A stretch of DNA of 64,000 bases, from contig NC_087072.1 in assembly GCF_026151205.1 (NCBI RefSeq), positions 15,724,169 through 15,788,168 on the forward strand, read 5' to 3'. The position numbers and the translations under genes were made by a program. Shown one piece after another: positions 6,321 to 47,580 of the stretch. The stretch comes from Bolinopsis microptera. Lineage: Eukaryota > Ctenophora > Tentaculata > Lobata > Bolinopsidae. The notes under the pieces are model-generated. The model was not told the DNA's origin and made no database searches. It was given only the letters and a program-made list of their open reading frames with translations. Each line of letters starts with the position of its first letter. The first letter of the stretch is position 1.

Positions 6321-6350
6321 TCAGTTCCCTTTGTTTGTCTATCGATACAG
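6321..6350 (+). other. probable 3' splice site of a 5' UTR intron
   Basis: A pyrimidine-rich stretch (TTCCCTTTGTTTGTC) ends in ATACAG just 18 bp before the best start codon at 6369. This suggests the EF-hand message has a spliced leader exon upstream. The open frame does continue upstream, but only through non-ATG codons. Confidence 0.4.
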
Positions 6351-6368
6351 GTTTTTGATTGGGTCGCC

Positions 6369-21300: not shown

Positions 21301-24300
21301 CTCCGCTTTGCTAGCGTAAATTTACGTCAACTGCCTATTTAAATCTGCTTTGTTGTAATTTTTTTGTAACGTTAGAATAGAAATAAAAATAAAGGTATAA
21401 CGTAACTAATTGTTTAATTGCTCAGTTGGTTTTCTTTAGCAATTATCTCTTCTAATTATACCAAGTAAAACTAAGAAATTCTTCTGATCACAAAGTATAA
21501 TGGCTGAATAAATGCTTCAAGAAAATAACTTTTACTAGTTAAATGTTCATAACTTGATAAATTAGAGTATCGTATTATGATAACTTGATAACTCGATATG
21601 TTTATAATCGGGTAAATTAGACGCTTTTAAAACTCAACGCAGATGTCTGCAGAATAAAGCGATTGAGGAAATAAAAATTTTCTTGTCCGAAAATATGCTT
21701 TTTATGATTTATAAACTCATGATGCATGCTTAATACAAGCATTTATAATGTTATAATTCACCAGAAAAATTCAAAATTAAGTATCGATTTTAATCACGCC
21801 TATTTATCCATTTGTAATAAAATGCTCAAATCTTGTAACCCCAGTGAAGACACCATGCTAAGCTCACATTTTAAATATCAAATCAGTGGATTGGGCGATG
21901 AACGGATGAACGTTGCGCAATAAACTTGCATTGGACATTTACAATTTGGGCGTTGTTTAAATACGAAGCAACCGTTAAGAGATACCAACCGTTAAGAGAT
22001 ACCAACTTGGGATTGAGTAAATCAAGCATATCTTTCAGCGTATTTAATGACAAATATCTCAATTTTCTGGTGGCCGTTTTCAAAATGAAAAAAAAAAACC
22101 TTTTAGTTTTAAACAAATTTTCGAAATGATTGACTGTGACTCAAAAGTCACTCGACAGCCTCTCATTGATCTGATTGAGTTTCGCCTGTTTGTCAGCCAT
22201 AGTGCCCCTATTCCTGACAACTCCGATGAAGTGGGCCCATCTCGTGAACTCCCCAGGAAATTGAGCCCAGTTCTGGAGTCCTGTTTCGGCTACGTTGTCT
22301 GATGGATTAGATGGGTTCCTGACCACAGGGCACATCTTCATTGGGAACATGGCACGTGCAGTCTCACTGTAGTTTGTAGACCATTCCAGACGCAGCTCAT
22401 GCTTACGTTGGATCATGTCGGTAAGTCTTTGTAACATTACCTCAGACGTGATGAGCAGGTTAGAGGCTCCTTTCTTTACCATGTCTTCGTGAGCCCCAAT
22501 AACGAGAAGGGACAGTAGCAGACTGCTTGGTCTGTGGAACTGATCCTTCCACAGAATACCATTCCTCCAATGCTTCACCATCCTGATCATATCCTTTATC
22601 TTTATCGGCTGTTTTCTGATGAAGTCGGACTCTTTTTCGCAGGCTGCTGAGAGATACCAGATGTAATCCATTGGTCGCTCTTCTTTTATTGTCTGGTACA
22701 AGTTTTCAGAACTGTAATCATTGCGCCAATCGTAACAAGGAATCAAATCCACGTCCATGTCTCCAACAGTGAATTGGACTGAGTATTGAGTGGTAGAGAT
22801 AAGGGTTAACTTTGGAAGAGATTTTTCTGCTTTTGTTAGCATCATTGCAGCATCCTTAAGCAAACTCGCCAGAGCACTTATGATGCTCGGTAGCCATCTA
22901 GCATGTCCTGTTTTTGGGAGATCATCACTGTACAGAACCAGATCTATATCTGATCTAGATTTAGTGGCAGTATCGTGGCCTAGAGATCCACCCTTGGCTA
23001 CTCTAGTCACACGGAACGGTAATCGGGTCTGGCAAAAATCAATAATCTGTTCAATAATTTCACGGTTGTCCTCGTATTTTACAAGCTCAGGACGAACAAT
23101 GCTTCCTTCAGATAAGTTGACTTGAAGTTTAACCTCCGGTCCGTCTACCGAGAAGTCGGGATGATCACCAACCGATCTCTCGATCATGGAACCCTGTAGT
23201 CTGACATCAAGTGGAGCATCTAGAGATCCTTGAAAGGACTGTTTCAGCTGATTCATGGTTAGATAAGAAGAGGTAGAAGACTGAAATGTATCCAAAATAT
23301 TGGACAGTACAGCATCATTTTCACCACCTCCATCCTGTCGCCGCTCAAACAGATCAGCCAGATTTTCAGGAGGCTGAGATCTGGACGTCTCTCTACCACC
23401 AAAGAACAGAACCGGATCTTCACTGAGGTCTTTCAGCAAATCCTTTAAAAAGTTATTTGAAATTATTATGGATACCCTGAGATTTTCTTCGGATGAAGCG
23501 GATATTACCTTGCCCTCACTCTCAATCTTCACAAGTTGTTTCTTGCTGTCGCATATATCCGTGGACGCCTTGGGATGTTCCTCGGATACAGTGGACTTTA
23601 CCTTACCCTCACTCTGACTGTTCTTGAGTTCCTTCTTGTTATCGGATATCTTTGTGGATCCTTTTGAATGTTCCTTTGATCCAGCAGACTTTACCTTGCC
23701 CTCACTCTCATTCTTCTTGACCTCTTTGATGTCATTGGATGTCTTCACGGAAGGTTTGGGATGTGCCCCTGATACGGCAGACCCTTGATTTCCCTCGCTC
23801 AGAACTTCCATGAATTGTTGTTTGTCATTGGACGCTGATCGAGTAATATTTAGCTTGCGCTGGGTCTGGATCCTTACCAGCTCTTTCTTGTTATTGTTCC
23901 CCATATTCTTGTTACTGTTCCCCATATTCTCTAAGATACTCATTTTTTTAGCTAACTTATAACAGTCACGTCAAAACTACATTGTTACAAAAATATCAAG
24001 GAAGGAATAAGTGATCGGGTTTGGATATATAGGAGCCGTTCACCGTTGCAACGTTGATGAACACAGATGACTTGTAACTGTAAGGAATTACAGATTACAA
24101 AACATAGAACTATAATGTTGGCGATCTTACTATCTCAGTCAAGAACTGATATAACTAAGCGTATGAGAGCTCGGCGTTAAGTATGCACATTGTTAATGTT
24201 TTACAATTTCAAATTCGGCAATATCAAAGATGTTGCTCCACGTAAATCAGATAGGGCAGAAGATGTTTTTACTTTTAAATTACTACTCTAGGAATCGGAC

Positions 24301-27300
24301 AACTTGCCCAACTTTCTCAGATTCCCACACACTGTTGCTTGATAAGATGCTTCAAATCGGATTTCCAATGCGCCCAAATTTTAACTGTCCTGTGGAGATC
24401 GTTGCAGTTCACATGATATTGATAAACGCGCTAGATACCATTTTACATGAACTGATCCATGGTATTATACTGTTATCTTAGATGCATGTGGTGTTACTAA
24501 GAGAGATCGTAGTGGTAAATATGGAATTTTTCACACCTTAAAAAAATTTGTTGAAACTTCCTTGCAACTACTTAAAATAATTTGCCTACTTCCGATAAAT
24601 CAGACGCTGTCGACGTAAAGATTGGGACAAAACGCAAGCTCCATTACGTCAACCCAAAAACATGTGCAGGATCATTTTACAACAATCAGAATTCTAATTT
24701 CGATATTGGTTTTTAACAAGTCTTTTTAAAAACGTGTTGGATCTGAATGACGTCACAACATGTTATGTTACAGATCATTTCAAGTTCCTTATACGCTATG
24801 TCGTGCACCTTGATAAGTTATGTATGTATTCGAGGAGCAACACGCGAAGATTCTCGGCTATTCCTATTAATCATCACAATATAATCCTTCATTATGCGAT
24901 CCAACACAATACTGCACTTCAAGGAAATGATACAATTGCAAAAATAGCACAACAATTGATATGAGATTGATATGAGAGAGGCTACCTTCAAGAAGACTTT
25001 TCCGTGAGAGCCTTATTTCGAGAGGAGGCTACACTTGCTCACATAAGGTCTTAAAGCTAGTGTTATTCTTAGCAAATTGTAACCCTCAACCAACTTGAAT
25101 TAAAACACTAACGTCCTTATCGCATTGACCAAAAAGCGTTATTTGAGTTTTATATCTAGTGTGCCGACTGTGAACCGTACATCATCCTTAATGATATGGT
25201 AATTCTAGTGCAATCATAGCTAAATCATATGCTAGATATATCTACTGCACAGTGTGAAGAATACAATTTAGGCGAGCTTAGACCTGAAATTATAGGTCTC
25301 AATTTAGTCGATAGAAGGGAAACGTAATCGTTCATTATTATAACTTTTGCCTGACCAATTACTGAATACCATTCAATTACTGAATACCATTCAAATTAAT
25401 AATTGGGAGCGGATTTCTAATAAAATGAAGAGCAAGCAAACACGTACTAGAGATACAACTTTACACGTTCAACTACTTTATCAAACTTTAAACTGTGGAC
25501 AAGGCGGTACTGTGAAAATAAGCTTATACCGTACAGATATAAACTGTGTAAAATCGAATATTTGCTATCAATGAAACCTATGACAGTAAACATTAAAGAA
25601 TAGCATGCAACATCACAAAAATTCATAGTGATCTTGACACGCATTACACTAAGGGTGAACCCCACTGATCACTATGCAATAAACAGATAACAAACTCAAA
25701 GGACCAATGCAATCGCGATCATAAAATGCACCGCACGAACAGTTTCCGATTGTTCATTTAAATTTTGTTCATCGTCATTTCCGCTACTAATTCTTGAGAT
25801 TTTGTAAATAAATCGCAAAGGTGGCGAAAAATAGTTTCACAATTTTCGCCACTACAAAGTAAGTAAGTAAACAGAAGAGCATGCTATCTGAAGTAACGAA
25901 GTTGATGTCCGGCGTCACAAATACGCACACTGCACAGAGAACTGAAGAGCTCAGCTGAATATGATAAGAAACCTAGTCCAGCAAAAATATAAAATTGTAT
26001 GTTTATGATTACTTGCCGATCAAGGCAGTTACAGGAATGTACAGCCAGGACTGATCACATGGCCACCCTTATCTTCAGTAACTGGTAAAGATGGCCGTAA
26101 AATTTTCCTAAGTTGGCGTGTTGTTTCTACTGGTATCAATACGGCCGCTTCGATCATAATAGCAAATACCCATGATAATTAGCCGCACCTATAATTAAAC
26201 TTTTTAATTTCATAGCTTAGTACGTTACCTCTATGTTATACATACGTCCAATAAAACGGTTGTAGAACCTCTAACCGGTCTCAATGGAAGGGAACATTTA
26301 TCATTTGTGCAAACGTGGTGAAATCCCTTAGTGCATAAGACAGATGCCTGATGAGTGAAGGTGCGTCGCGTGCATTTTATTTATGTTAAACAATTATATG
26401 GTAGTTTTGAATGAGTTTGGTACGAAACTCATTCAGTTGGGCAGTTGAAGGGTTTTATTTTTATCTTAGCTTTTGTATGTAGCTTTTTTTGTAAAACAGA
26501 AAATGGGCCTTCGAGCAGTATTACCTGGTTTCGTCAATTACTGGTACAAGGACGGTATCCCCCAGCAAGTACCAAGTCTGGCTTTTATTCACATAAAATA
26601 TTGACAGTACACAGTATCATTGTAAAAACGCACTCATTTTAATGCATAAATTGAAAAACTTTCCTAATCTAGTACCATTGTCTCTCAAGAAAACAATTCC
26701 CAAAAGCGCACCATTATTTAATACTAACCCGGATTCTATTCTCACTACACAATGGTCAGAAAAGTATGGTCAACACCCTTACAACAACTCAGTATTTTTT
26801 AAAGGTCCATTATTAGCAATAAACCGATATAATGTTGCAGCAACTTCCCCGCCTAGTCTGTATAAAAACTATGCTCATCGATCAGCAAAATGAAAACATT
26901 GAAGACGAATGGCCTAATTTCATGTTATTTTGTATAACAGGACTAAGAAAATCAAAGCGTAACATAAACCAAAATGCCGATAATAACCTTGTCTCTACAT
27001 CTTAGATTATATGCACACACTTATGCACCACTCAATAAACGTCGCATATCTCATCAATTACACTGCCAACATAGGACATTCTTTTTTATCGCCGCGTATT
27101 TCAAATCAAGTTACAAATTCTACAAATTTTGAAGTGCTCAGTCTTGTTTTACTTTTCTTATCTTTACCTATTAACCATTGGAAAATAAAACTTTAAGTTG
27201 TAAACCTTCATTGCATACTTTACCGGTAGAGTCTAAATTGAATAGTTTGAGATTTCCTTTACATTTTATATTTATGCATGTGCCCCACGGGGATGAATTT

Positions 27301-30300
27301 CTTATTACCATTGATATTTTTTTTGAGTAAACATTGGCTGGTACTACGGGCCAGTCCCCAACAAAAAAAAATTGAAAAATTATACCAAGTAAAACTAAGA
27401 TTTTAATCTGATAAGAAAGGTGGAGCAAATGCTTATTGAAATCTGTAGTAAATATTCATAACTTGATAAAATCGAGTATCGTATGATAGCCTGATAATAT
27501 ATAATATATTTTTCAACCGGATATCGACCGTTTTTAAGATTTAACAAAGATTTATTAACTTGTCGTAATGTCTATAGCATGACGCTATTTATAAAGTATC
27601 GATCCGGTAGTCCAAAGCAGGCTCTAGCTCTCAACATATAACAATCTCATAATGCTTGCTACATACATTTTCATAATTTACCGAAACATGATCATGATAA
27701 TTATAATAAAAAATGGATTATATTTTGTTACCTAAAAGCACAATTTCGCATAAAAAGTAACGCAGGAAATGAGCTTTTCCTTGCAAAGCTTACATTTCAA
27801 TATCATCAAAGCGATGGATTGAACAGTGCAAGTTGCAAAATGGATCTTCAGCATTTGCGCACTTTTTAAACACCGTGCAAACCATCCTATTCAGAAATTG
27901 CTGGTAAGGCATAGATATTCGGTCCAATCAGCCTCTAATAAATCGAGTATAACCTCAGTTTATAATGTCTTAAACCGCGGTGGGAGTTTCGCAAATCAAA
28001 ATGTGAGAAAATATTTATAATTCTGTACATCAGTATTTAAGTCCGTGACTCAAAAATCGCTCGAAAGCCTCTGAACGATTACATTGAGTTTTGCCTGTTT
28101 GGCAGCCATAGTGCCCCTATTCTTGACAACTCCGATGAAGTGGGCCCATCTCGTGAACTCCCCTGGGAACTGTGTCCAATTCTGCAGTCCTGTTTCTGCC
28201 ACGTTATCTGATGGGTTAGATGGGTTCCTGACCACAGGGCACGTCTTCATTGGGAACATGGCACGTGCAGTCTCACTGTAGTTTGTAGACCATTCCAGAC
28301 GCAGCTCATGCTTACGTTGGATCATGTCGGTAAGTCTTTGTAACATTGACTCAGACGTGATGAGCAGGTTAGATGCACCTTTCTTTACCATATCTTCGTG
28401 AGCCCCAATAACGAGAAGGGACAGTAGCAGACTGCTTGGTCTGTGAAATTGATCCTTCCACAGAATGCCATTCCTCCAATGCTTCACCATCCTGATCATA
28501 TCCTTTATCTTTATCGGCTGTTTTCTGATGAAGTCGGACTCTTTTTCGCAGGCTGCTGAGAGATACCAGATGTAATCCATTGGTCGCTCTTCTTTTATTG
28601 TCTGGTACAAGTTTTGAGAACTGTAATCATTGCGCCAATCGTAACAAGGAATCAAATCCACGTCCAAGTCTCCAACAGTGAATTGGACTGAGTACTGAGT
28701 GGTGGAGATGAAGGTTAACTTTGGAAGAGACTTTTCTGCTTTTGTCAGCATCTTTTGTGCATCTTTTAGCAAACTCGCCAAAGCACTGATGATGCTCGGT
28801 AGCCATCTAGCATGTCCCGTTTTTGGGAGATCATCACTGTATAGAACCAGATCTATATCTGATCTAGATTTAGTGGCAGTATCGTGGCCTAGAGATCCAC
28901 CCTTGGCCACTCTAGTCACACGGAACGGTAAACGGGTCTGGCAAAAATCAATAATCTGTTCAATAATTTCACGATAGTCCTCATACCTCACAAGCTCAGG
29001 ACGAACAAGACTTCCTTGACTTCCTTCAGTCAAGTTGACCTGAATTTTCACCTCCGGTCCGTCCACTGAAAAGTCGGGATGATCACCAACTGATTTCTCT
29101 ATTGTGTCAATTGTAGTGCTCGGTAGTCTGGCATTTAGTGGAGCATCTAGAGATCCTTGAAAGGACTGTCTCAGCTGGTTCATGGTTAGATTGGTGGAGG
29201 AAGAAGACTGAAATGTATCTAAAATATTGGACACCACTGCTCCATTTCCACCACTTCCTTCCTGCTTTCGCTCAAACACATCAGCCAAATGTTCAGGAGG
29301 CTGAGACCTGGACGTCTCTCTACCACCACAGAATGGAACTGGATCATCACTCAGATCCCTCAGCAAATCTTTCACAAAGTTATTGGATATTATCATGGAC
29401 GCCTTGAGATGATCTTCAGATCCAACAGACCTTTGCTTGCCCTCGCTCTGGATCTTCATGAGCTCGTCTTTGGTGCTGCTATCTTTCTTGTACTTCAAGT
29501 ATTTGGACTCCCAGCTTCGTTCCAACACAAACCTCTCCCTGTCAGTGGTTTGTCTGGCACTGACTGCTGTTTCTACCTCAGGAGCACTACAACCGTCAAT
29601 AGACGGCTCGAAAAGGACACAACTTCTCATCTCCATTAGGATTTGTATGGTTTTATCGCTGTATTCAGCAGGAAGTGGGGTGGTCATGAGGAGCTCAGCT
29701 CCTTCATTCCACACGATATCAATGCTAGGTCCCAGCACGACAGGAGTGCAGCCCTCAGCTCTCAGAACTACTCTCCATCTCAGTTGACAGATCCACCCAT
29801 AACACCTGTAGTTCACATACATTAATCTGCCCATTGAGCCATCAAGACGAAGAGCTATCTCATACGCTTGGGTGTTGTCACAAAGTGCCTTCCTGTTGAC
29901 GCACAGTTGCCACTTGAAGTTCTGGTCGTCCATCAAGTCGAGAAGTGCGACACCCTCCGCATCCCGATGAGTTCTGGTTTCAATTGCAGGGTTCTTGTAG
30001 ACCACTTCACTTGCGTAAAACAACGTCAGGATCTTCACACCCACCACTATGTGGTCTCCCGACACAAAGTTCTTCAGCTTGTTGGTCTCACAGATAGAGT
30101 CCACTCCTCTTCCAATACCAGAGCCGGGCGGGAACTCTGTTACCAACCTCCTACTCTCCACGTGATAGGGATCCTTCAGCTCTCCCAGGGTAAACTGGCA
30201 CTCCAACATATACCTCCGGTTCGTTTTGTCATCGTTTTTTATAAACATGGAGACTTTGCCACGTGCTTTCTCGTCGTCTCCGTTAGGAAAGAGACGTATT

Positions 30301-33300
30301 TGCCAGTGAGCACCTCCCATGTAGAACTTAGAACTGTGGTAGGACTCCCTGGAACAAAGTAGGTCCAACTTGTCCAGCTTAGCATTTTCATCATGATTAA
30401 CATCCATTGGATTGAGGGTGATGATATCTTGAAACATGGTACTGACTATAGTGCATTCTAGTTCTAAAGAGAGACAATCGTTCCTGACAAATCCCGGCTC
30501 GTTCATTACGTCAACTAACTTGAAGAAGCGCTGACAACCCCAGCACTGGCCGTTCTTTGAGAACACAGCACCCTCCCTGGCAGAAATATTGAGAGATTTG
30601 AGGGGAGCTAGTAAGTTAACGAGGGACAAGTTGAACTGTAGAGCAACTTGTACCCCAGCAGGGTACATCTGGGCCTTGTCAAGAGACAGGTAAACTTTAA
30701 CGTAATCCGCGTTCAGTGCCAACCCCAGCTCCCACTTGTGTCCTCCGAATGTGAAGGGTTCCGAGCAAGCTCCCTCGTAGAGCATCTTGGAGAAGTTGCC
30801 GAGGAGGAAGCGGAATCTGGTGGGTCTGTAGTCGAGGTGAGGTGGTGCCGAGGTGTAGTCATCACATGTCTCCACCCTGTTGAGGCGGAGGAAACAGTGC
30901 ATCTCCTGCAGCTCACGTGACATTGTGGATACTGCGGAGGGGGGACGGGGAGTTTTAGCGGGACTCCTTGTTAGTGCGGGACTCCTTGCTAGTCCGGGAC
31001 TCCTTGCTAGTCCGGGACTCTTTGTTCGTGCGGGACTCTTTGTTCGTTGAACTAGTTCAGAGGTCATCTTTACATTATCCTGGTATATTGATGTCGGTGA
31101 AACATACCGTTAATAAGCAATAAAATTACCAAGATCAATAAAGAGTAACTAAGTTTTAATTGAAACTCTAAATCAAAATGTCAGACAAGTTTCGAGTTTG
31201 AGGTTGAACTAGCACAAGCTTTCTGAAAAAGTAGACAAAACAAAATCTAAAAAGCCTACTAACTGAGAATAGTGGAAATTCAGCAAAACAATCAAGTGCA
31301 ATTTATCAGTAGTACTATCAATAAGAAAAGATTGGCCAGTTACATAATCACACAATCTCTTACGCTGCTTGATTTTGCCAAGCATAAATTGCTCCTACTA
31401 TATCGATTCGCAGCTCAAACGCGATTGTTGAAATTCACTAATACAGTTCTTACTAAACAATTTAAACTTTTAACAAGTGCAACAAATAGGACAGTAGTGT
31501 TGGTGTCACGTGACTCAGTATGGAAAACTGAGCTGAGCATCATACAGGGCCGGGACAATTGTTATTTCTGCCATGCAATCTATTTGTTTTTAGTGCAGGA
31601 CAACACGACACTTGCTACTTTACCATAACTTTCTTTACGACACAATTACAAGTCAAACTTCAAGTCACGTGAATATACAGCCTGGAAAGAATAAGGAGGG
31701 AGAATACTCACCGAAGTGGTAAACAATGAAGTCGTGATGGAGTTTGCCGTTGTATCCTCCGAAGAAGTAGACAGAGTTGTTGTAGGTGAAGGAACCCTGG
31801 CCCATTCTGAAAGGACCCACCTGTTTCAGCTTTCTGAAACTTTTCAGTTCTCGTCCTTCTCCGGTTTCTGAGTGCACAAATCTACTTATTGTACACTTTT
31901 AAATAATAATTATAAGCTAAGCACAAACGAGCAGCTTCCGTTTAATCAACTTTCCTTACTTTCTCACAGTTCTAAATCCCTAGGGATATCAATGTATTGT
32001 AGAAACATTTTCTAGCTCAAAAGAGAAAGGCGTTGCGTATTATAACTAAAGAAGAGCTAGTACATTACTGGAATAGTTTCTAACACCACACCGCCTCTGA
32101 CCGGTTCTTACCTAAGTTCAGGATATAAGGAGCAGTGTTGTAACACTGTGTTGAACCCTTGCTGAGATGAGCTCCTCCAAGTACAACTAGGTTCCTACCC
32201 ACCATCCCAACTGCGGCTAAGTACACTAGCGGTATTGTGTTTCTGTCTGCTTTGTACAGGTTGCTCCTGAAATTAAGGAGATTACAAGTTACTCCTGAAA
32301 TAAAGGAGATAACAGGTTACTCCTGAAATAAAGGAGATAACAGGTTACTCCTGAAATAAAGGAGATAACAGGTTACTCCTGAAAAAAGGAGATTACAAGT
32401 TACTCCTGAAATAAAGGAGATTACAGGTTACTCCTGAAAAAAGGAGATTACAGGTTACTCCTGAAAAAAGGAGATTATAAGTTACTCCTGGAATAAAGGA
32501 GATTACAGGTTACTCCTGAAAAAAGGAGATTACACGTTACTCCTGAAGAGAAGAGAGTACCCTCTCTGAATTCGCCAGGAGGGACTATTCAATCTAATTT
32601 AATAAATTCTACTCAGCATTTGAGAGTTCAACGATACATTTCATTCAAAAAAGACAAAAGTAAGTTTGGTGCCATGTTAACGTAAAATATTTTTGCTCTG
32701 AAAAGAAACTACAGCATGCTATCCTAGCTCCAGACACAAAGACCAATAAAACACATGGAAATTGGAAACAAGTCATGTGACTCAAGTATGGGGCATAGTT
32801 GGAGAAATATTTTCAGCTCACCATCGAACATGTCGAACAATTTTAAAGCGCGAGGTATTCCGTCTTCCCATAACGATTTACATAGTTAAAAAAGGCGAAC
32901 CACGTAAAACAGTCTTGAAGCTTAAGTCTTGACAACATTTTCAGTAGGTAAATCATTAGTCACCCAAATAAAATTGCAAATAAAAATTATCATTCCAGAA
33001 AATTGTAAATTTAAAAACAATAGGGGGGTAGCCAAGGGGAATTTTGGCGGAAAAAAAATCCATTAAGGCATTTCCCAGAATTCGCCAAAATTCCCCTTGG
33101 CTTCCCCCACAATATAAGTAAATTAAGATGCTCAAGACCATCGGGTACAGACTCTCGGTACAGACTCTCACGAATCACAGGGGTCTCCCAAATAAAGTTC
33201 TATCCAAGTTAAAAGAAGCTTTTAGTATTAATAATTAAACATTTCTGCAGAGCAGAATAACTTCTGAATGTCAGTATGTAATTTTTATTATTTGAATTAA

Positions 33301-36300
33301 CGTTAATGCTATTAATATACACATATGAAGTAAATCCTAATTATAATATACATGCTCCCAGACCACAATCAATGAACATGCTGATGAGAAATTACACACT
33401 GTGTACACGTGCACTAAAAATAATGATCCATTCAAACAAATTAGCGTACGTGTTGTAGAGGGCGAAGGACGCAGTAATTATTATAATAATATGGTAGTTA
33501 GATGCACTATGATTAGCCCGATACTAATGGCCGTTTTTCTTGTATATACAATATTGCTATTGTGTAATGGCATACTAAAGCCCTGATCCAAACGATGAGT
33601 ATCTTACTATATATAAAGCGAGACGATATATGTTTATCCGTGCCATTTTACTGACACCACGGCATCAACTTTAACGCTACTTTCCGCGAAAACCGTAAAA
33701 GATATACAACTGAAACTTTTTTGACTGGGCCAAATGCTTTAATGGCCTCCAAATCAGCATGAAAAAATAAAAAATTGGCCAAGAAATAGAAGTTTTAGAG
33801 CCCCAAATTTGGACCCCCAAGTGGTGTCAAAAACGCGAATTAAATAGATAATAATTATTTTAGTCTCTTGAGTCTTGACCCTATTTTAGGGTTATACGGG
33901 TTCCTGCTAGTTATAATAATCCAAGAGAGCGCCCTATAGTTTGTAATTATGTAGTAGACTGGGCGGTGGTAGACTAAATTATACAACAACAGAGACCGGT
34001 TTATATAAGATCCTGATAGTGGAATGTGAATATTTTACCACCACCTGCCCTAACAAATAGAGTTGCATCCCGTGCTATTATTAAACAGGTGGGTAAAAGT
34101 GTTCCTTCATATCAGTATAAGTAATAATAATAACATGATCAACACGATATCTACACGGTTGTCTAAACATGGTTTATCAAAACAGTTTTGGTTTCCACTT
34201 AGTCTGGATCTGTGGTGTCAAAGAAAAAGTACTTCAGCGCTTTGAGCTGAGCCTCAAATACTTGGTGGAATAATATATTACTCGAGAACAAATTATATAG
34301 AAAATTTGAAAATAAATGGCTGCCTCCCAACTCACCAGTGTTTCATATAAAAGTCGTACTCTACAAAAGTAGATTCCTTAATAGTTTCCAGCTCGCTCTG
34401 TATCCAGTACTGTTCGTTTTCTCCCATTATACGTGTCGTGTTTAAACCTCCGAATACTGCGAGATATAGGATATAATGGAGTTCCTAAAATAGAATCCCT
34501 AGAATTTACAAGTAAACATTATATGGTTCATATCAGGGTTATTCTTCAGAATCTAAACACGAGATCCAGTGGAAGAGGCTGAATTGTTCTGGCTAAACTT
34601 GTGTGTCAACCAGTGGAAGAGGCTGATTTATTCTGGCTAAACTTGTGTGTCGAATGGTTTATGTGTTGCAACTGCAATACGTGAAAGTGTGGTGCCTGAT
34701 ATTTCGATTTTCGCTCTGGAATAAGGGCAAAACATATAATAGCAGGGTGGAGCAAGAAGTTGTGCATTAAATTTAATACCTCACTCAAATAATGTAGGTG
34801 TAAATTTAGGCCGGCCCATGCCAATATGTAACCTCACAACATTTTCTTTTGTCCAGCTCAAAGTATTAAATTAAGCCCTAAAAGGCTCGCAGAGTCCTGA
34901 TCCCCTTGATAAAAAGTTTAAAGTTTCCACAATTTTCGAGAGCATGATCACTGATCATGCGCATATGAAAAGAAAACGTACCAGTATATAACTTACCAGT
35001 AACTTATTAGTAACTATATCCGTACATATACTATTATAATAACTTACCAGTTATCTTGTCAGTAATAGGATTCAGCACACACGACGGAGCGTATCGTCCG
35101 TGGTAGATCCGGCCATCTTCAAACTTAAGGAACCTGTCAGTAAACACAGTAAATACTCAGACAGCTCGCTAGTAACTACACGATACTCCTATTCAGAACA
35201 GACAGCAAACTCCTGTCTGCTCTACATTATAATAATATGTACACATTACACAATTGCAATTGTTTAAAAGTCCGACTAATCACAATTTTTCAAACACATC
35301 ACAGTTTCCAAATCTGGCTATTACAACACCATACTTTTAAAAACGTTCGAGATTTAAACGTTGAAGAGAGCACACTAACAATGTGAATTGTGAACAGTAA
35401 CAACAACCCACTGATTCAAGCCAGTGTAAAGGGAAATAACCTGCTATCAGCGTCGTAGAAATGTCTAGTCATCTTACGGTGGCCTATAACTTTCCACACA
35501 TTGGTTTCCACATCATAGGTTTGTATGTTTATAATGGCCACCCCCTTGGAGTCTATACCGCCTATATAGTAGATAGTACTGTTGACCAGCACAGCACAGT
35601 GTCCCATAGAGCTTGTCCTGTAGAAGTAACCAATTCAGTGAAAATAAATATACCCTCATTTTAAGTTTACGTCACCTATTTTTTGAGAGCAAATCGAACG
35701 CATGTCATTTATCGCCTAGTTATTTTGATAATTTTTACCGGGTTCAGTGCAATACCATGCTCATTAATCAAGAATATGCCAAAAATATGAGATAATTCTT
35801 ACTTCTGAATAAAGGTTAAATATTTTAAAGTTGTAAAACAGGTAAATTGATATTCACGGCAGGTATTATTAAAGCTTGAATGTTACCTGGCATAAGCTGG
35901 GTACATTTCTCCCAGGGGGTGCTGTGGGTTGAGTTGGTGCCACTGAGATGAAGTGATGTCATACTTCCACAACTCGTCTGTAATCTGGTAGTTCATCTGT
36001 CCTCCAAACATTATCAGGTAGTTCTGGGGTACGAGCATTTGTGTTAAATAATTATGTTATAATTACTGTTCTTACGAATAAATAATGAACTTTATAAGAA
36101 ACTTGGTCTCACCGCTCACGAAAGATTTGTCAAATCTCAATAAGTTAATGATTGACAGGATTGTCGATAATAATTGGCCGAATGACACCAAACCCACGTG
36201 AACACTAAATGTGCTCTTATCACGTGACACGTCAATGTGTCACGTGATCTTCTGACGTGGTCACCTCGCTTCAAAGAAAACACGGACACGGACTAAAAAA

Positions 36301-39012
36301 GGTGACGTCTTATCAACTGCAAGTCCACTAAAAGGACATAAGTTGCACTAATTATACACTAATTAGACACTAATTAGACACTTCTACAGGTTGTCCAGAT
36401 AAGGGGAGCTGCTCTGACGTGGTCTAATCAAGGCCCCACATTTAGAGCGTAAAGAAATTAAAACTAAAAGATTAAGAATTTGACCATACATTAGAAAAGA
36501 CTAAAAAAGGCCTGTCTTCGACTACGTTGGGTAACGTGGGTAACGCGAACGTGTTCTTGATAATTTATAATGGACACAGTTGTCTAGCAAGTAGTTACAT
36601 TCATTTCCATTTCTATGCTGTGACCTGTATCTAATATTTAGGATTGGAAACAGCATACATTAATGAACTGATACTCAACGAGGGATTTTGTCCAATAACT
36701 CGCTGTACTACGACATTTTCGTCAGAAGGAACTGGTACACAGTTGTTCCTTTACAACCTTACCATGTTAATTATTCAAAATTGTTTTGCCTTATATGGAG
36801 GTTAATGATATGGGGTAATTGAAACTTCAGTGGAAAGTTTACATTAAAAGAGAATAAAATATGAAGTTTTTCACCGAGTGGATTTGTAAAACTCATGCGA
36901 ATGATCTTACCCATATAATATGAATATCCTCTTTCCTCAATAAACTTTATCCCAAAAAGTAGCGAAATCTTGGGAAAATTGGGAGATTAGGTTTGGCCAC
37001 GATACAGTCACTATACGCCATACGGCATATAAACGGTGACCGTATCGTGGCCAAACATAATCTCCAAATTTCAAAAATTTAATTAATATCGGAAGAGAAA
37101 GCCAATAAGAACGTGTAATCAGCTTAAAAAGGAGGTCTACAAATGTACAGCATCCCTTGCAAGTTAGTCCCTTATCCCCGGTATATATTTAAAAACCTTA
37201 AACTAAATGTACCTTGTAAGCAGTGAGAGTGTGACCGTCCCTATCTATTGGTCCACTGTCTGTCCCTTTAGACCACGTGTTAGTTAACAGATCATACTTT
37301 GCCATCTTTACTTTAGTTCCATCCAGGTGGTACCCTCCGAACACCCAGTAGGTATGATCCACTAGAGCTCCACCGAAGCTAGCGCGTCCACCCGGCGATG
37401 AGGCTGCAAGTATGAGTCAGCAGATAGTTGACATGGTTCATGGATAAAAAGAACACGACACATTGTGGTTGCAGCTTTTTTCCTGGCATATGTCATAAAA
37501 TGCCATCATATATTATTTGTCGACATAATATTGATATCAAATTTCTTAATAACATTATAACATGACAGCCACAGTTCCAAAAAACGGCAGATACTGTCGT
37601 TAACACAACACTTGATTATTATACTCACTGCTAGCTGCTCGGTAACTCCACCAATTGACAAGGGTATCAATCTCACAGTTATCTCCAGTAAAACCGTCAG
37701 GACACTCACAACCCCCAACTTTACACTGACCACCATTCTCACATTTACAGGTTGCTGTGTTACACAGATCACCTTGCCAACCAGCATTACAGACACACAC
37801 CCCACCAGTGCACTGACCTTGACCACTGCAGTCGTTGGGACAACCGTCAACTCTGCAAATAGTTATAATTAGGAACTTATGACATCGGGACTATTGTTAG
37901 AAACTCCAGACATAAACTCCAGACATAAACTATTCAGACATACTAGAAGGAAACATAATTAACTAACATAATTAACGTATTCCAAACCTATATGAGATAC
38001 TGAAACCATCATGGTTAACAAACTCGTCAGGTCTGAAAACTAAGTAGATGGAATTGGATGTGGAAACCATTTCTCGGTCCTGCTTTAGTAGTTGTATGTC
38101 ATCGTCTATTAGCAGTCCCCTGATGTGGTAGTGGAGATTAAGTGCCTTAAATTTTGATTGCATTAGGAAGAAAACGTTGTAACAATGCGATATTTGCAAG
38201 GCCAGGATACTCAATTTGTAGAAAATTTGTGAAAATACTAAAATTTCAAACCCAATTCATTGACAAGTAAAGAAAAATAGTTTCATACCCATAAACACCA
38301 ATGGTACGATCAAAGGGAGAGAGACCATCATGAAAATGAAGGAAATCCCAGCAACACTCTGTCATGAATTCATTCACATACAGTCTGATTGTTGTGCCCC
38401 TGAAAATTTACTAGATTAACATATTGATTCAAGTAAAACGTTCCAAGAAAATGGATACAAAGCAGAAAAGTCAAAGAATTTAAAATGAAAATTATGTGCA
38501 TTACACATCTTTATTTAAAACTTAAAATCAAATGAAATGCATAGCTTACACTGGAGATTCTATAAGTACTGAACATTGGGAGAGATTTGAGTATCCTTTC
38601 TTAGAAACACCATCCCACTCATTACTAAGGATGACGCCCTCATTATCAGTTATCCTAAAAAGTAGTTGAATAATTATTAATTTAACTTTAAACCATAGAA
38701 AAATAATCCCTGGTTTATTGAGCCTCTACGTTATAGGGGATATCAAACGATTGTTGATGATCAAAAAGATTGTGCATCTAAAACAATAAACTTTCAAATG
38801 TATCTCTGGGATCTCAGTAAACTGTAAATTAAGAACTACCTTTTTCTCAACTGGCATATGGCACATGATATTTCATAAGACCCAGTGCTATTGGTACATG
38901 CACATTTATCAAGAATGCAAGGTCCAGTGCATGATCTGCAGACTTCAGAGACTACAACTTGAAAGTAAAGTATAAAATATATCCCTGCCGCGCACAACTT
39001 CCATATTCTCAT
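9125..39012 (-). CDS. ATRN: attractin-family multidomain transmembrane protein (25-exon gene)
   Basis: I joined 25 coding exons (listed separately) with GT-AG borders and matching phases into one frame of 1184 codons plus stop. Order: signal peptide (1-24), Cys-rich EGF-like segment, CUB (about 60-174), EGF pair (175-245), Kelch propeller (about 250-590), PSI/Cys-rich repeats (about 590-838), two laminin-type EGF (839-935), a membrane-proximal beta-rich region, one TM helix (about 1059-1078) and a tail of about 105 residues. This is the attractin/attractin-like architecture; by family knowledge these are cell-surface proteins acting with E3 ligases and melanocortin-type or developmental signalling in vertebrates. 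Vertebrate attractins are about 1400 aa and have a C-type lectin domain between PSI units; I find no exon for it here. ATRN versus ATRNL1 cannot be separated. Intron 12 hosts two OAS-family genes on the same strand. Confidence 0.88.
9462..9598 (-). CDS. ATRN: attractin exon 24: cytoplasmic tail
   Basis: Basic juxtamembrane segment (KIRYSQYRTQRNLEIQLQE), then RPF, as in the attractin tail. Acceptor CTTATTTCAG, donor GTCAGT. The preceding intron contains the 2.9-kb inverted repeat. Confidence 0.8.
9771..9846. repeat. 20-bp minisatellite, about 4 copies
   Basis: Near-perfect tandem copies of CTGCTGCCTACCATCACATA in attractin intron 24, just outside the left arm of the giant inverted repeat. Confidence 0.9.
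9886..12814. mobile_element. 2.9-kb long-terminal-inverted-repeat (foldback) element
   Basis: The left arm (about 9886-11050) is repeated in inverse complement in the right arm (about 11480-12814). Long stretches are identical, for example 9930-10830 against 11880-12780. Outer ends read GTACAGACAGATCCG on both sides, next to TA, which would suit a TA target duplication. The right arm has about 220 bp of extra sequence (11655-11880) with a short direct duplication. The centre (about 11050-11480) has no transposase. It sits in the attractin intron between the TM and tail exons. Best read as a non-autonomous DNA transposon with arms over 1 kb. Confidence 0.8.
12947..13046 (-). CDS. ATRN: attractin exon 23: transmembrane helix
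   Basis: Encodes NQIDLKQFF followed by a hydrophobic helix of about 20 residues, the characteristic attractin TM entry. Acceptor TTATTTCAG, donor GTGCTT. Confidence 0.85.
13047..14483. other. attractin intron 22 sequence, no feature recognised
   Basis: Non-coding, AT-rich. No exon that fits the attractin frame is seen in this part of the intron. Confidence 0.4.
14484..14632. mobile_element. MITE, GGGGTCGTTCAC family, copy 2
   Basis: A 149-bp sister of 7610-7810: starts GGGGTCGTATTACGTAATC, ends GTGAATGACCCC, and shares the middle segment TTTTGACACAATAGCTATG. Its G runs are much shorter, which shows that those runs expand or contract between copies. Confidence 0.78.
15242..15340 (-). CDS. 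ATRN: attractin exon 22: membrane-proximal region
   Basis: Encodes SRYDWDLRAAELRLYLEF and onward, ending RTLRIE. Found by looking for the stretch expected between exons 21 and 23; phase 0 on both sides fits. The acceptor CACCTTTAAG and donor GTTAGA are weaker than the others, so this exon is less certain. Confidence 0.6.
16242..16385 (-). CDS. ATRN: attractin exon 21: membrane-proximal beta region
   Basis: Encodes MTKLNASITEDVMIEIVV, then YTEFNLNTTMFYLGNS, with several N-glycosylation sequons. Acceptor CTTTCAG, donor GTATGT; phase 0 both ends. Confidence 0.78.
16597..16691 (-). CDS. ATRN: attractin exon 20: post-EGF region
   Basis: Encodes GYEGDPKKDGGTCF and onward, the conserved exit from the last laminin-EGF. 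Acceptor TTAATTAG, donor GTAATA. Confidence 0.8.
16894..17067 (-). CDS. ATRN: attractin exon 19: laminin-EGF 1 end and laminin-EGF 2
   Basis: KNCDSCVDGYYGDA, then CHCSEHSEPFC and CDTCIKG. Acceptor ATTTCAG, donor GTAATT. Confidence 0.9.
17860..17965 (-). repeat. tRNA-derived SINE-like sequence
   Basis: Read on the minus strand, CATTGGCAAGATTATC resembles a degenerate box A, and GGTCCGGGTTCGAATTC about 25 bp later matches a pol III box B/T-loop, with CTCGCATGCAGAAGG between them as in a tRNA-Ala-like anticodon arm. The acceptor stem does not pair, so it is not a working tRNA. Likely a SINE head in the attractin intron; its 3' extent is unclear. Confidence 0.5.
18254..18312. repeat. 28-bp direct duplication beside exon 18
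   Basis: The unit CATGACACGTGACACTGCAA with TTATCC is present twice in tandem, ending about 7 bp from the exon 18 donor. Confidence 0.85.
18319..18430 (-). CDS. ATRN: attractin exon 18: laminin-EGF 1, first half
   Basis: CPLCQCNGHSNC, then CDQCQGDTRG, typical laminin-EGF spacing. Acceptor TTTGTCAG, donor GTTTGT. Confidence 0.87.
18563..18696 (-). CDS. ATRN: attractin exon 17: PSI domain
   Basis: CSAHRNCTLCQAEPECGWC is a textbook PSI core. Donor GTAAGC. Confidence 0.85.
18926..19006 (-). CDS. ATRN: attractin exon 16: short linker
   Basis: Encodes DTSTYHARYPYGQCVKW. The frame is fixed by the phases of exons 15 and 17. Vertebrate attractin would have its C-type lectin domain near here; this exon is far too short for one. 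Confidence 0.7.
19037..19146. repeat. 21-bp minisatellite, about 5 copies
   Basis: Tandem copies of AGATACATATCTTAGTCTAG(T) in attractin intron 15, about 30 bp upstream of the exon 16 acceptor region. Confidence 0.9.
19814..19936 (-). CDS. ATRN: attractin exon 15: PSI repeat
   Basis: Encodes CSKCLGNEHMIRSCMWC. Acceptor TTAACACAG, donor GTCAGT. Confidence 0.82.
20108..20407 (-). CDS. ATRN: attractin exon 14: PSI/Cys-rich repeats
   Basis: A long exon with at least 14 Cys (CDEECVPGDGF, CHACQTRPDCVWD, CEHCKGQCVWD). Acceptor GTAACCCAG, donor GTAAGT. Confidence 0.82.
20812..20957. repeat. 10-bp minisatellite, about 14 copies, abutting a splice donor
   Basis: Tandem AAGTAACACT units with two variant copies. 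The array stops a few bases from the exon 13 donor (20964); in minus orientation each unit reads AGTGTTACTT. Confidence 0.92.
20965..21072 (-). CDS. ATRN: attractin exon 13: PSI/Cys-rich segment
   Basis: Encodes VCEDHTNKSRCLS, then ECGWNETTSNC, a PSI-like pattern. Acceptor ACTATCAG, donor GTTAGT. A 10-bp minisatellite begins immediately downstream of the donor. Confidence 0.78.
21073..22140. repeat. 3' flank of OAS gene 1, part of a tandem segmental duplication
   Basis: Blocks here match the flank of the second OAS gene at a constant offset of about 5.9 kb: TTATACCAAGTAAAACTAAG at 21456 and 27379, TTCATAACTTGATAAA near 21546 and 27467, and GCGATG(A)ACGGAT-type sequence near 21895 and 27812. 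The flanks are clearly more diverged than the coding parts. Confidence 0.7.
22141..23943 (-). CDS. OAS-family nucleotidyltransferase, gene 1 (no MATH domains)
   Basis: Single-exon, 600 codons from the ATG at 23941-23943. Residues 48-165 are about four 31-residue repeats starting SEGKVKS. The catalytic half begins near 290: GGSLGH at 318-323 (P-loop-like nucleotidyltransferase motif), S-D-I-D with D332/D334 as metal ligands, and third Asp D399 in DVDLIP. The OAS C-domain follows: KIKDMIRMVKHW at 448-459, CPVVRNPSNPSDNVAE near 538-553. This matches 2'-5'-oligoadenylate synthetases, which by family knowledge make 2'-5' oligo(A) from ATP on binding dsRNA; RNA binding here is not proven. No zinc ribbon of the cGAS type is seen. 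It lies in intron 12 of attractin, same strand, next to the 28-31 kb paralogue, with about 95 percent identity over the last 310 residues by eye. It lacks the MATH domains of that paralogue. Confidence 0.88.
   Translation of the reverse strand: MSILENMGNSNKNMGNNNKKELVRIQTQRKLNITRSASNDKQQFMEVLSEGNQGSAVSGAHPKPSVKTSNDIKEVKKNESEGKVKSAGSKEHSKGSTKISDNKKELKNSQSEGKVKSTVSEEHPKASTDICDSKKQLVKIESEGKVISASSEENLRVSIIISNNFLKDLLKDLSEDPVLFFGGRETSRSQPPENLADLFERRQDGGGENDAVLSNILDTFQSSTSSYLTMNQLKQSFQGSLDAPLDVRLQGSMIERSVGDHPDFSVDGPEVKLQVNLSEGSIVRPELVKYEDNREIIEQIIDFCQTRLPFRVTRVAKGGSLGHDTATKSRSDIDLVLYSDDLPKTGHARWLPSIISALASLLKDAAMMLTKAEKSLPKLTLISTTQYSVQFTVGDMDVDLIPCYDWRNDYSSENLYQTIKEERPMDYIWYLSAACEKESDFIRKQPIKIKDMIRMVKHWRNGILWKDQFHRPSSLLLSLLVIGAHEDMVKKGASNLLITSEVMLQRLTDMIQRKHELRLEWSTNYSETARAMFPMKMCPVVRNPSNPSDNVAETGLQNWAQFPGEFTRWAHFIGVVRNRGTMADKQAKLNQINERLSSDF
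23944..27360. other. spacer between the two OAS genes, no gene recognised
   Basis: AT-rich intron sequence. I looked for remnants of MATH-domain coding sequence upstream of gene 1 and saw none. Short open frames at 24230-24481 and 26445-26893 (+) have no motif. Confidence 0.45.
27361..28049. repeat. 3' flank of the MATH-OAS gene, duplicated with 21.43-22.14 kb
   Basis: Syntenic blocks shared with the flank of gene 1 show that the duplication extended about 700 bp past the stop codon. That supports DNA-level tandem duplication rather than two independent retrocopies. Confidence 0.65.
28050..31067 (-). CDS. MATH-MATH-OAS fusion protein (OAS gene 2)
   Basis: Single-exon, 1005 codons, ATG at 31065-31067. 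Residues 1-45 are a basic Ser-Pro repeat (ARSPGLARSP). About 83-207 is a MATH/TRAF-like beta-sandwich (FSKMLYEGACSEPFTFGGHKW, then L-x-V-Y-L-S-L). About 243-350 is a second one (SSKFYMGGAHWQIRLFPNG). About 385-490 is a third, Cys/Trp-rich block I cannot name. One copy of the 31-residue linker repeat follows (541-570), then the OAS module: GGS at 723-725, D737/D739, third Asp D804, KIKDMIRMVKHW at 853-864. All catalytic ligands are present. MATH domains in TRAFs and SPOP bind receptor tails or substrates, so the fusion may couple oligonucleotide synthesis to a signalling scaffold; this is inference. Host intron and strand are the same as for gene 1. I am sure of the OAS fold, fairly sure of the MATH call. 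Confidence 0.87.
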   Translation of the reverse strand: MTSELVQRTKSPARTKSPGLARSPGLARSPALTRSPAKTPRPPSAVSTMSRELQEMHCFLRLNRVETCDDYTSAPPHLDYRPTRFRFLLGNFSKMLYEGACSEPFTFGGHKWELGLALNADYVKVYLSLDKAQMYPAGVQVALQFNLSLVNLLAPLKSLNISAREGAVFSKNGQCWGCQRFFKLVDVMNEPGFVRNDCLSLELECTIVSTMFQDIITLNPMDVNHDENAKLDKLDLLCSRESYHSSKFYMGGAHWQIRLFPNGDDEKARGKVSMFIKNDDKTNRRYMLECQFTLGELKDPYHVESRRLVTEFPPGSGIGRGVDSICETNKLKNFVSGDHIVVGVKILTLFYASEVVYKNPAIETRTHRDAEGVALLDLMDDQNFKWQLCVNRKALCDNTQAYEIALRLDGSMGRLMYVNYRCYGWICQLRWRVVLRAEGCTPVVLGPSIDIVWNEGAELLMTTPLPAEYSDKTIQILMEMRSCVLFEPSIDGCSAPEVETAVSARQTTDRERFVLERSWESKYLKYKKDSSTKDELMKIQSEGKQRSVGSEDHLKASMIISNNFVKDLLRDLSDDPVPFCGGRETSRSQPPEHLADVFERKQEGSGGNGAVVSNILDTFQSSSSTNLTMNQLRQSFQGSLDAPLNARLPSTTIDTIEKSVGDHPDFSVDGPEVKIQVNLTEGSQGSLVRPELVRYEDYREIIEQIIDFCQTRLPFRVTRVAKGGSLGHDTATKSRSDIDLVLYSDDLPKTGHARWLPSIISALASLLKDAQKMLTKAEKSLPKLTFISTTQYSVQFTVGDLDVDLIPCYDWRNDYSSQNLYQTIKEERPMDYIWYLSAACEKESDFIRKQPIKIKDMIRMVKHWRNGILWKDQFHRPSSLLLSLLVIGAHEDMVKKGASNLLITSESMLQRLTDMIQRKHELRLEWSTNYSETARAMFPMKTCPVVRNPSNPSDNVAETGLQNWTQFPGEFTRWAHFIGVVKNRGTMAAKQAKLNVIVQRLSSDF
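31068..31711. promoter_or_regulatory. presumed promoter/leader of the MATH-OAS gene
   Basis: This 640-bp gap separates the MATH-OAS start codon from attractin exon 12. A CACGTGACTCAG block near 31507 combines an E-box with a partial AP-1-like site. An acceptor-like ATATACCAG lies about 12 bp upstream of the start codon on the minus strand, so a spliced leader is possible. No TATA box is assigned. Confidence 0.3.
31712..31867 (-). CDS. ATRN: attractin exon 12: last Kelch blade
   Basis: GQGSFTYNNSVYFFGGYNGK motif; acceptor TGCACTCAG, donor GTGAGT. It is followed by the 10.6-kb intron that holds the two OAS-family genes. Confidence 0.87.
32112..32266 (-). CDS. ATRN: attractin exon 11: Kelch blade
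   Basis: AAVGMVGRNLVVLGGAHLSK motif. Donor GTAAGA. The acceptor AATTTCAG lies at the edge of a tandem array that repeats the acceptor sequence itself (see 32267-32545). Confidence 0.85.
32267..32545. repeat. tandem array of a 3' splice site (about 10 copies, 26-28 bp)
   Basis: Units read GTTACTCCTGAAATAAAGG on the plus strand. On the coding (minus) strand each unit is CCTTTATTTCAG followed by GAGTAACC, essentially a copy of the true exon 11 acceptor and first exon bases (AATTTCAG then GAGCAACC). The array therefore presents about ten decoy acceptors directly upstream of the real one. Confidence 0.88.
32546..33601. other. attractin intron 10 sequence with a small foldback
   Basis: Apart from an inverted repeat at about 33026-33102 (arms beginning GTAGCCAAGGGGAATTTTGG, about 35-bp loop), nothing is recognised here. 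Confidence 0.5.
33602..33910 (+). mobile_element. Helitron-like element, short copy
   Basis: A 309-bp element that starts with TC (TCTTACTATATATAAAGCG), ends with CTAG, and stands between A (33601) and T (33911), the Helitron insertion pattern. A short hairpin (ACCCTATTTTAGGGT) lies about 15 bp before CTAG, also Helitron-like. The same two ends flank the 2.4-kb element at 59402-61837. No Rep/helicase is encoded, so it is non-autonomous. Confidence 0.75.
33911..34335. other. attractin intron 10, no feature recognised
   Basis: Non-coding sequence; no motif seen. Confidence 0.4.
34336..34456 (-). CDS. ATRN: attractin exon 10: Kelch blade
   Basis: VFGGLNTTRIMGENEQYW. The acceptor at TCTCGCAG was chosen because it preserves phase; the earlier TTTTAG would not. 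Confidence 0.78.
35048..35133 (-). CDS. ATRN: attractin exon 9: Kelch, between blades
   Basis: Encodes RFLKFEDGRIYHGRYAPS and following residues. Acceptor TTACTGACAG, donor GTAAGT. Confidence 0.82.
35441..35617 (-). CDS. ATRN: attractin exon 8: Kelch blade
   Basis: GHCAVLVNSTIYYIGGIDSK, followed by YDVETNVWKVIG: a full Kelch unit. Acceptor CTTCTACAG, donor GTTATT. Confidence 0.87.
35887..36023 (-). CDS. ATRN: attractin exon 7: Kelch blade
   Basis: NYLIMFGGQMNYQITDELW motif; donor GTAACA. Phase 0 entry. Confidence 0.87.
36192..36250. promoter_or_regulatory. cluster of CACGTG E-boxes in an attractin intron
   Basis: Three CACGTG palindromes within about 60 bp. Two belong to a perfect 11-bp-arm inverted repeat, TCACGTGACAC with its complement around GTCAATG. 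TCACGTGA is the preferred site of USF/MITF/TFE-type bHLH-zip factors. Function is not shown. Confidence 0.35.
36980..37066. repeat. short foldback (MITE-like) in attractin intron 6
   Basis: Inverted arms of about 24 bp (GGAGATTAGGTTTGGCCACG and its complement) with a loop of about 37 bp. No coding content; no target duplication assigned. Confidence 0.65.
37213..37403 (-). CDS. ATRN: attractin exon 6: Kelch blade
   Basis: Encodes a Kelch motif (YWVFGGYHLDGTK, then WSKG) with the double Gly. Acceptor ATACTTGCAG, donor GTACAT. Confidence 0.87.
37629..37852 (-). CDS. ATRN: attractin exon 5: EGF domains and entry to Kelch region
   Basis: Two consecutive EGF-like units (CPNDCSGQGQC to GDLC; CKCENGGQC to GDNC). 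Acceptor TATTTGCAG, donor GTGAGT. Confidence 0.88.
37988..38119 (-). CDS. ATRN: attractin exon 4: end of CUB
   Basis: Encodes YLVFRPDEFVNHDGFSISY, the last CUB strands. The donor GTTTGG at 37987 was chosen over a later GTTAAT because only it keeps phase with exon 5. Confidence 0.75.
38289..38399 (-). CDS. ATRN: attractin exon 3: CUB core
   Basis: Acceptor ATTTTCAG, donor GTATGA. Encodes the CUB signature ECCWDFLHFHDG, with conserved Cys and the DFLxFxDG turn. Confidence 0.85.
38550..38654 (-). CDS. ATRN: attractin exon 2: start of CUB domain
   Basis: Acceptor ACTTTTTAG, donor GTAAGC. Encodes the first CUB strands (ITDNEGVILSNEWDG, then a Cys). Confidence 0.82.
38840..39012 (-). CDS. ATRN: attractin exon 1: start codon, signal peptide, Cys-rich segment
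   Basis: The ATG at 39010-39012 opens a hydrophobic leader (MRIWKLCAAGIYFILYF) followed by Cys-rich EGF-like sequence (CRSCTGPC). Donor GTAGTT after AAAAAG; the exon ends with two bases of a codon. Confidence 0.8.
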
Positions 39013-46813: not shown

Positions 46814-47470
46814 CCACGTGACCCTGACTAGCAGCAGCAGGAACAACAGGACCAGTTTCTCTTCCAGCAGTCACATCCCTGAAGGATCTACTGTCTACCT
46901 TTGTGGACCTCCTCTTCCTTTTGTCGATACCACCGTTAATCCTGAGAAGAACAGTGTTACGAATAAATTGACCTAACTTTGCTAGTCCCCTCCAGTTGAG
47001 GTGAAGGAAGTCTGGTTTTTGGTGTTTGTTGAGGTCGCGAGAGAGAGAGCGGTCAAGTAGACCATCTCTATCACAGAACTCATCAAATCCATCCACATAA
47101 CTGACACCAAAATTGGACGGGAGCAGCCTACGTCGAATCAAACTGTTAAAATATATAAGTTTTCTATTTAAGTCAGCACGTTTAGAGGGAATTGCTGGAC
47201 AAACAAAAACATGTATACACGGATTGACAGATTGTATCTGTGCAATCTTTGAAGCTAATGCGTTATAAATAATTTCAATGTCATGTTGGTTCTTGACGTC
47301 TTCGTTTTTGAGGTCGTTGACCCCGCACAATATTACACAGTTTCTATACCCCAACGTGACATAAGGATCTATATTATCAATGACCGGAGCGAAGATGCGT
47401 TTGCCAGGTAACCACTTGCCGAATGACTTAGCAGGATCAGTACCAAATTTCAAGCCTCCAGTGTTTAACT
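46782..47470 (-). CDS. LINE ORF1 remnant with SGNH/esterase-like domain
   Basis: The minus-strand frame carries ILCGVNDLKN (the GxND block) and PDFLHLNWRGLAKLG (the D-x-x-H block) of the SGNH hydrolase-like esterases found in ORF1 of CR1-type LINEs. The GDS block with the catalytic Ser is missing because the frame is cut by a stop just upstream of 47453, so the protein is truncated and without its nucleophile. A basic C-terminus (KRKRRS) follows. No in-frame ATG near the observed start. Confidence 0.75.
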
Positions 47471-47580
47471 TAACTTATTATTATTTTTTTTTACATACTC
47501 CTTCTTAGTGTGGTGACTTGGGGTCCATAAATATAACAATACAAGCTGATAAACCAAAAAGAACAACTGGGGTAGGTAGG

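What the first reader, a model, noticed from the sequence alone, without database searches (positions are those of the whole stretch)
28050..31067. MATH-MATH-OAS fusion: an oligoadenylate-synthetase-type enzyme joined to TRAF-like domains
One uninterrupted 1005-codon frame joins two MATH-like beta-sandwiches (about 83-207 and 243-350) to a complete OAS-type nucleotidyltransferase with GGS (723-725), D737/D739, D804 and the OAS C-domain. Known OAS proteins are single or tandem OAS units, or carry ubiquitin-like tails; I know of no described MATH-OAS fusion. MATH domains bind receptor tails and ubiquitin-ligase substrates, so this may link nucleic-acid sensing directly to signalling.
Basis: partly seen in the sequence, partly recalled or inferred. 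Interest (0 to 1): 0.92.

Follow-up and report, generated by a model that had tools for sequence, protein, structure and literature searches.

The report
MATH-OAS fusion enzyme, comb-jelly genome
A comb-jelly genome carries one unbroken gene that joins two peptide-binding MATH domains to a complete antiviral-type 2-5A-synthetase (OAS), a combination I could not find described, next to a second copy of the OAS part that lacks the MATH domains.

Summary
One open frame of 1019 codons (1005 from the first ATG), on the MINUS strand at 28050-31109, encodes two MATH domains (each above Pfam's cut-off by itself), a ~175-residue region of unknown fold, a linker, and an OAS-type nucleotidyltransferase with GGS, all three catalytic Asp and OAS1_C. 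Codon usage says the frame is coding across the MATH/OAS junction. 4.1 kb downstream on the same strand lies a paralogue (22141-23970), 88% identical over linker and OAS but without MATH (dN/dS 0.14 in OAS). These are the only OAS1_C matches found in the genome. Both are intronless, nested in one intron of an attractin-like gene. Corrections: the MATHs resemble TRIM37/SPOP more than TRAF; dsRNA-contact residues are only partly kept, so 'dsRNA sensor' is unproven. Best reading: an active 2-5A-synthetase-like enzyme whose location or stability is set by MATH-bound partners; target and receptor are unknown. Several soluble IRE1-type kinase-KEN ribonucleases in the genome are a possible, untested downstream arm. 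No transcripts or other ctenophore genomes could be examined. New variant of a known kind.

The parts
28050..31109 (-). MATH-MATH-linker-OAS open reading frame, 1019 codons, intronless; ATG at 31067
   Evidence: single uninterrupted frame, sole full-length match in genome
30958..31044 (-). N-terminal SP-rich repeat (KSPxxx/RSPxxx, 18-bp unit, 4.8 copies)
   Evidence: translation
30456..30800 (-). MATH domain 1 (ORF 104-218)
   Evidence: MATH_2 60.8 bits, MATH 35.4 bits; closest to own-genome TRIM37-like MATH
30030..30353 (-). MATH domain 2 (ORF about 253-360)
   Evidence: MATH_2 51.1 bits
29475..29999 (-). region of unknown fold between MATH2 and linker (ORF 371-545)
   Evidence: no Pfam match; in-frame coding score 0.18 over 500-545 vs background mean -0.44, 99th percentile 0.00
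29025..29474 (-). linker shared with the paralogue (ORF 546-695)
   Evidence: dN/dS 0.25
28053..29006 (-). OAS-type nucleotidyltransferase (ORF ~702-1019); GGS codons 28893-28901, Asp codons 28857-28859, 28851-28853, 28656-28658; OAS1_C 28107-28553
   Evidence: dN/dS 0.14
22141..23970 (-). second intronless OAS ORF (609 codons), no MATH; N-terminus built of ~93-bp repeats of the linker unit
16871..37890 (-). attractin-like host gene (EGF, ATRN-type kelch propeller, PSI, laminin EGF exons) whose intron between ~31.71 kb (last kelch exon) and ~21.09 kb (PSI exon) holds both OAS ORFs

Best explanation
A real fusion gene encoding a cytoplasmic, catalytically competent OAS-type nucleotidyltransferase that makes linear oligoadenylate (2'-5', possibly also 3'-5') and whose placement, assembly or turnover is set by two N-terminal TRIM37/SPOP-class MATH domains that bind peptide motifs on partner proteins. 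SHOWN here: the single frame, both MATH domains, intact catalytic motifs, purifying selection on linker and OAS, coding signal across the junction, and a MATH-less paralogue sharing linker and OAS. INFERRED: catalysis, product linkage, cytoplasmic location, and that MATH recruits the enzyme; the paralogue would be the untethered form. Which ligand switches it on is open: some RNA-side basic residues are kept, others are lost.
For: Domains over curated cut-offs; Lys-GGS, three Asp, and the R210 and K213 equivalents kept against pig OAS1; the only OAS1_C places found in the genome are these two; junction coding; OAS dN/dS 0.14 between copies; the weak AF2 model of the OAS part still finds pig OAS1 and human OAS3 first in the PDB, Foldseek E 2.7e-5 and 5.7e-5. 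Sponges hold OAS activity (PMC2852836), and lower Metazoa have OAS without a recognised RNase L (PMC6307210).
Against: No transcript evidence; structure of the MATH half could not be modelled (pLDDT 35); R195 and K66 equivalents lost, acceptor T190 is C and T187 falls in a gap; no ligand or receptor known; conservation in another ctenophore untested; the MATH half has no paralogue, so selection on it could not be measured.
Confidence: 0.5

Rival explanations
1. Apparent fusion only: a MATH gene and an OAS gene lie head to tail and happen to be in frame, or an unseen intron or alternative ends separate them at the transcript level.
For: Homology to the MATH-less paralogue starts at residue 546, so the OAS unit can exist alone; no transcript seen.
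Against: No stop between the halves in this frame while the other two frames have 2 and 5 stops over residues 500-545; codon score there exceeds the 99th percentile of background; no donor-like site of the two patterns searched anywhere in the ORF.
Confidence: 0.1
2. An OASL-like scaffold: the OAS part mainly binds RNA or proteins and the MATH domains do the signalling, with catalysis secondary, as vertebrate OASL acts through ubiquitin-like tails.
For: Fused protein-interaction domains and a partly altered substrate pocket.
Against: All three catalytic Asp, GGS and the Lys before it are intact, and the OAS part is under purifying selection, whereas human OASL lacks catalytic activity (PMC4446440 abstract); dsRNA contacts partly lost.
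Confidence: 0.2
3. First half of a 2-5A to ribonuclease pathway: its product activates one of the soluble IRE1-type kinase-KEN proteins in the same genome.
For: Six KEN matches at E 3.7e-7 to 8.9e-4, with kinase-KEN frames at several of them, best PDB match IRE1 2.6e-43, RN...H motif of KEN kept; no luminal or ankyrin part recognised upstream. Nematostella responds to poly(I:C) with genes that include OAS1 and an RNase L homologue (PMC8476169).
Against: RNase L senses 2-5A through ankyrin repeats (general knowledge), which are not seen here; closest relatives are IRE1, not RNase L; no functional link.
Confidence: 0.15

Closest known systems
OAS superfamily (OAS1-3; within bacterial CD-NTase clade C, PMC10732462)
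   Same: NTP_transf_2 + OAS1_C, GGS and three Asp, single OAS unit like OAS1
   Different: fused behind two MATH domains and a ~340-residue intervening stretch; part of the dsRNA interface changed
OASL (OAS plus two ubiquitin-like domains)
   Same: an OAS unit joined to domains of the ubiquitin/protein-interaction world
   Different: N-terminal MATH instead of C-terminal ubiquitin-like; catalytic Asp intact
cGLRs with ankyrin or TPR modules (PMC9980059)
   Same: sensor nucleotidyltransferase plus protein-interaction module
   Different: those are cGAS-type; this is OAS-type and the module is MATH
TRIM37 / SPOP MATH domains
   Same: MATH_2 model; CWGxxRFF...L core shared with the TRIM37-like gene of this genome
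   Different: no RING, B-box or BTB in this protein; MATH is doubled

Membership tests
OAS | OAS1_C (PF10421) over cut-off | tested here: met
   53-57 bits vs 19.9
OAS | GGS and catalytic Asp triad | tested here: met
   737-739, D751, D753, D818 aligned to pig OAS1
OAS | basic dsRNA-binding face | tested here: inconclusive
   K199->R and K204 kept; R195->S, K66->H, T203->I
OAS | makes 2'-5' oligoadenylate from ATP | not testable with these tools
   needs an enzyme assay
MATH | MATH profile over cut-off | tested here: met
   both domains, 60.8 and 51.1 bits vs 32
MATH | beta-sandwich fold | tested here: inconclusive
   single-sequence AF2 is nearly all beta but pLDDT 35
TRAF | TRAF-type MATH with RING/zinc fingers/coiled coil | tested here: not met
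   no RING, zinc-finger or TRAF-specific family in the Pfam scan of the ORF; coiled coil not tested
OASL | C-terminal ubiquitin-like domains | tested here: not met
   ORF ends with OAS; no ubiquitin match
cGLR (Mab-21) | PF03281 | tested here: not met
   absent from the ORF scan
RNase L (for the kinase-KEN loci) | ankyrin repeats before kinase-KEN | tested here: inconclusive
   none recognised by eye among ORFs up to ~7 kb upstream; those upstream ORFs were not scanned with profiles

The most novel reading that the evidence does not exclude
Ctenophores run a 2-5A-type second-messenger system in which a MATH-tethered OAS makes oligoadenylate at receptor or ubiquitin-ligase complexes and a soluble IRE1-derived kinase-KEN ribonuclease, without ankyrin repeats, is the receptor: an OAS/RNase pathway assembled independently of vertebrate RNase L.
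Probability: 0.12. Interest if true: 0.85.

Novelty: new variant of a known kind. Interest (0 to 1): 0.52.

Why it matters
What invertebrate OAS enzymes do without RNase L is an open question: Hu et al. (PMC6307210) found OAS but no RNase L in sponges, cnidarians, molluscs and others. An OAS covalently tied to peptide-binding MATH domains offers a handle: pull down what MATH binds and the pathway partner may follow. The fused and MATH-less copies side by side form a natural comparison. If the animal is a ctenophore, it also bears on how early animals deployed OAS.

Tried and rejected
AF2 of residues 80-545 alone: pLDDT 35, discarded, not searched. AF2 of the OAS part: pLDDT 45; Foldseek hits kept only as weak support because TM is 0.27-0.30. 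MAFFT of MATH1/2 with SPOP/TRIM37 exon pieces misaligned the fragments, replaced by pairwise scores on hand-joined exon pieces. phmmer of MATH1 against the PDB: nothing. Viral contigs searched with the OAS pair and with the MATH half: no relative, so no sign of viral origin. Third MATH in residues 371-545: no Pfam match, z 3.3 at best, not claimed. STING and Mab-21 searches of the genome found nothing, but the controls were silent too, so absence is not shown. COX1 not found; the 18S search failed twice on the server side. Prokaryote-type promoter/terminator scan is not informative for an animal gene. Retrocopy origin considered: both ORFs are intronless and nested, but no poly(A) tract was seen by eye in the DNA after the stop codons, and the copies share a stretch of 3' flank (73% over 138 bp), which favours DNA duplication for the second copy.

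Full report
OBSERVATION. The frame runs on the minus strand, 28050-31109, 1019 codons between stops, first ATG at 31067, 1005 residues. Pfam: MATH_2 (two stretches, 2.2e-29 for the protein), MATH 1.6e-11, NTP_transf_2 1.1e-5, OAS1_C 3.9e-14, all above curated cut-offs. Scanned alone, MATH1 scores 60.8 bits and MATH2 51.1 against a cut-off of 32. Genome-wide, these two are the best MATH_2 matches.

IS IT ONE GENE? Codon usage trained on the domains, against local non-coding DNA, scores residues 500-545 at +0.18 where background 46-codon pieces average -0.44 (99th percentile 0.00); the other two frames there contain 2 and 5 stops. No donor-like site of the two patterns tried occurs anywhere in the ORF, and acceptor-like ones only near residues 55 and 212. 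So the frame is coding through the junction. That a single message spans it is inferred, not shown.

THE SECOND COPY. 22141-23970(-) encodes 609 residues, 88% identical to residues 546-1019, without MATH; its N-terminus is made of ~93-bp repeats of the linker unit. Between copies dN/dS is 0.14 in OAS and 0.25 in the linker. Third-position identity is 100% over codons 816-875 but 53-86% in the linker blocks; linker and OAS differ (104/147 vs 282/320 identical third positions, Fisher p 1e-5), which looks like gene conversion over the active-site region. These two are the only OAS1_C matches found in the genome, and no relic of the MATH half was found elsewhere in the window.

SURROUNDINGS. Kelch exons matching the attractin/LZTR1 propeller (37.4-31.7 kb, the last one reaching profile end 289/289), a PSI exon at 21.0 kb and attractin/laminin EGF exons at 18.4 and 17.0 kb lie on the same strand. 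Both OAS ORFs therefore sit in one ~10.6-kb intron of an attractin-like gene. Exon ends were read by eye.

ORGANISM. The assembly has 264.65 Mb; thirteen contigs are 15.2-26.2 Mb long, and the next ones sampled are under 0.2 Mb. Bolinopsis microptera is reported with 265 Mb, 13 chromosomes, largest 26.2 Mb, N50 20.8 Mb (PMC11797021 Table 1); C1 here is 26.21 Mb and C11 20.83 Mb. The paper gives 346 scaffolds, this assembly 232 contigs. Identification is by these sizes only.

ENZYME. Against pig OAS1 (alignment, mapped): the Lys before GGS, GGS, D74, D76, D147, R209 and K212 are kept. On the RNA side (positions in human numbering, their role from my own knowledge) K199 is R and K204 is kept; R195 is S, K66 is H, T203 is I. 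Of two acceptor-pocket Thr that Hu et al. link to strict 2'-5' specificity, T190 is C and T187 falls in an alignment gap; in sponge OAS that retain 3'-product synthesis both are changed (PMC6307210). So an active enzyme is likely; strict dsRNA dependence and a strict 2'-5' product are not established.

MATH. MATH1 is closest to the TRIM37-like gene of the same genome (score 84, z 12.7; SPOP-like 53, z 6.4). The TRIM37 and SPOP labels are mine from exon sequence, and the exon pieces were joined by hand. The class binds short peptide motifs on substrates of ubiquitin ligases (general knowledge). With no RING or BTB in this protein, a tethering role is the simplest reading.

POSSIBLE DOWNSTREAM ARM. 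The KEN ribonuclease domain matches six places at E<0.001. Three are kinase-KEN frames with a Met shortly before the kinase, closest to IRE1 (2.6e-43 for one) with the RN...H motif kept. No ankyrin or luminal part was recognised upstream, but those ORFs were read by eye, not scanned with profiles, and one of the six may be the animal's true IRE1. STING and Mab-21 gave no hit, with silent controls.

LITERATURE. No held paper pairs OAS1_C with MATH; the one hit mentions both apart. Hu et al. found no ubiquitin-like domain in lower-metazoan OAS. cGLR architectures listed are ankyrin, TPR and tandem. The Mnemiopsis immune-repertoire paper does not mention OAS or MATH in its main text. Protein databases could not be searched, so the architecture may already sit unnamed in them.

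Noticed in passing
G000 C5:21.917M, C11:1.760M, C2:6.649M, C11:2.21M (two), C3:6.493M (L013-L018): Several IRE1-type kinase-KEN ribonuclease genes without recognisable luminal or ankyrin part; two or more tandem copies on C11.
   Followed up: partly
window codons 816-875 of the ORF (28485-28664): 100% third-position identity between the two OAS copies against lower values around it: gene-conversion-like tract over catalytic Asp818.
   Followed up: partly
window 60096-61346: Identical 59-aa frame repeated every 537 bp, at least three copies.
   Followed up: no
window 32255-32547: 28-bp tandem array, 10.6 copies, in an intron of the attractin-like gene.
   Followed up: no
window 43445-47474 and 51243-52628, minus strand: LINE-type retroelement frames (endonuclease/reverse transcriptase with a preceding SGNH-like frame; and a second reverse transcriptase), judged by eye.
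   Followed up: no
window 6219-7238, plus strand: Protein with four EF-hands in a single 339-codon frame.
   Followed up: partly
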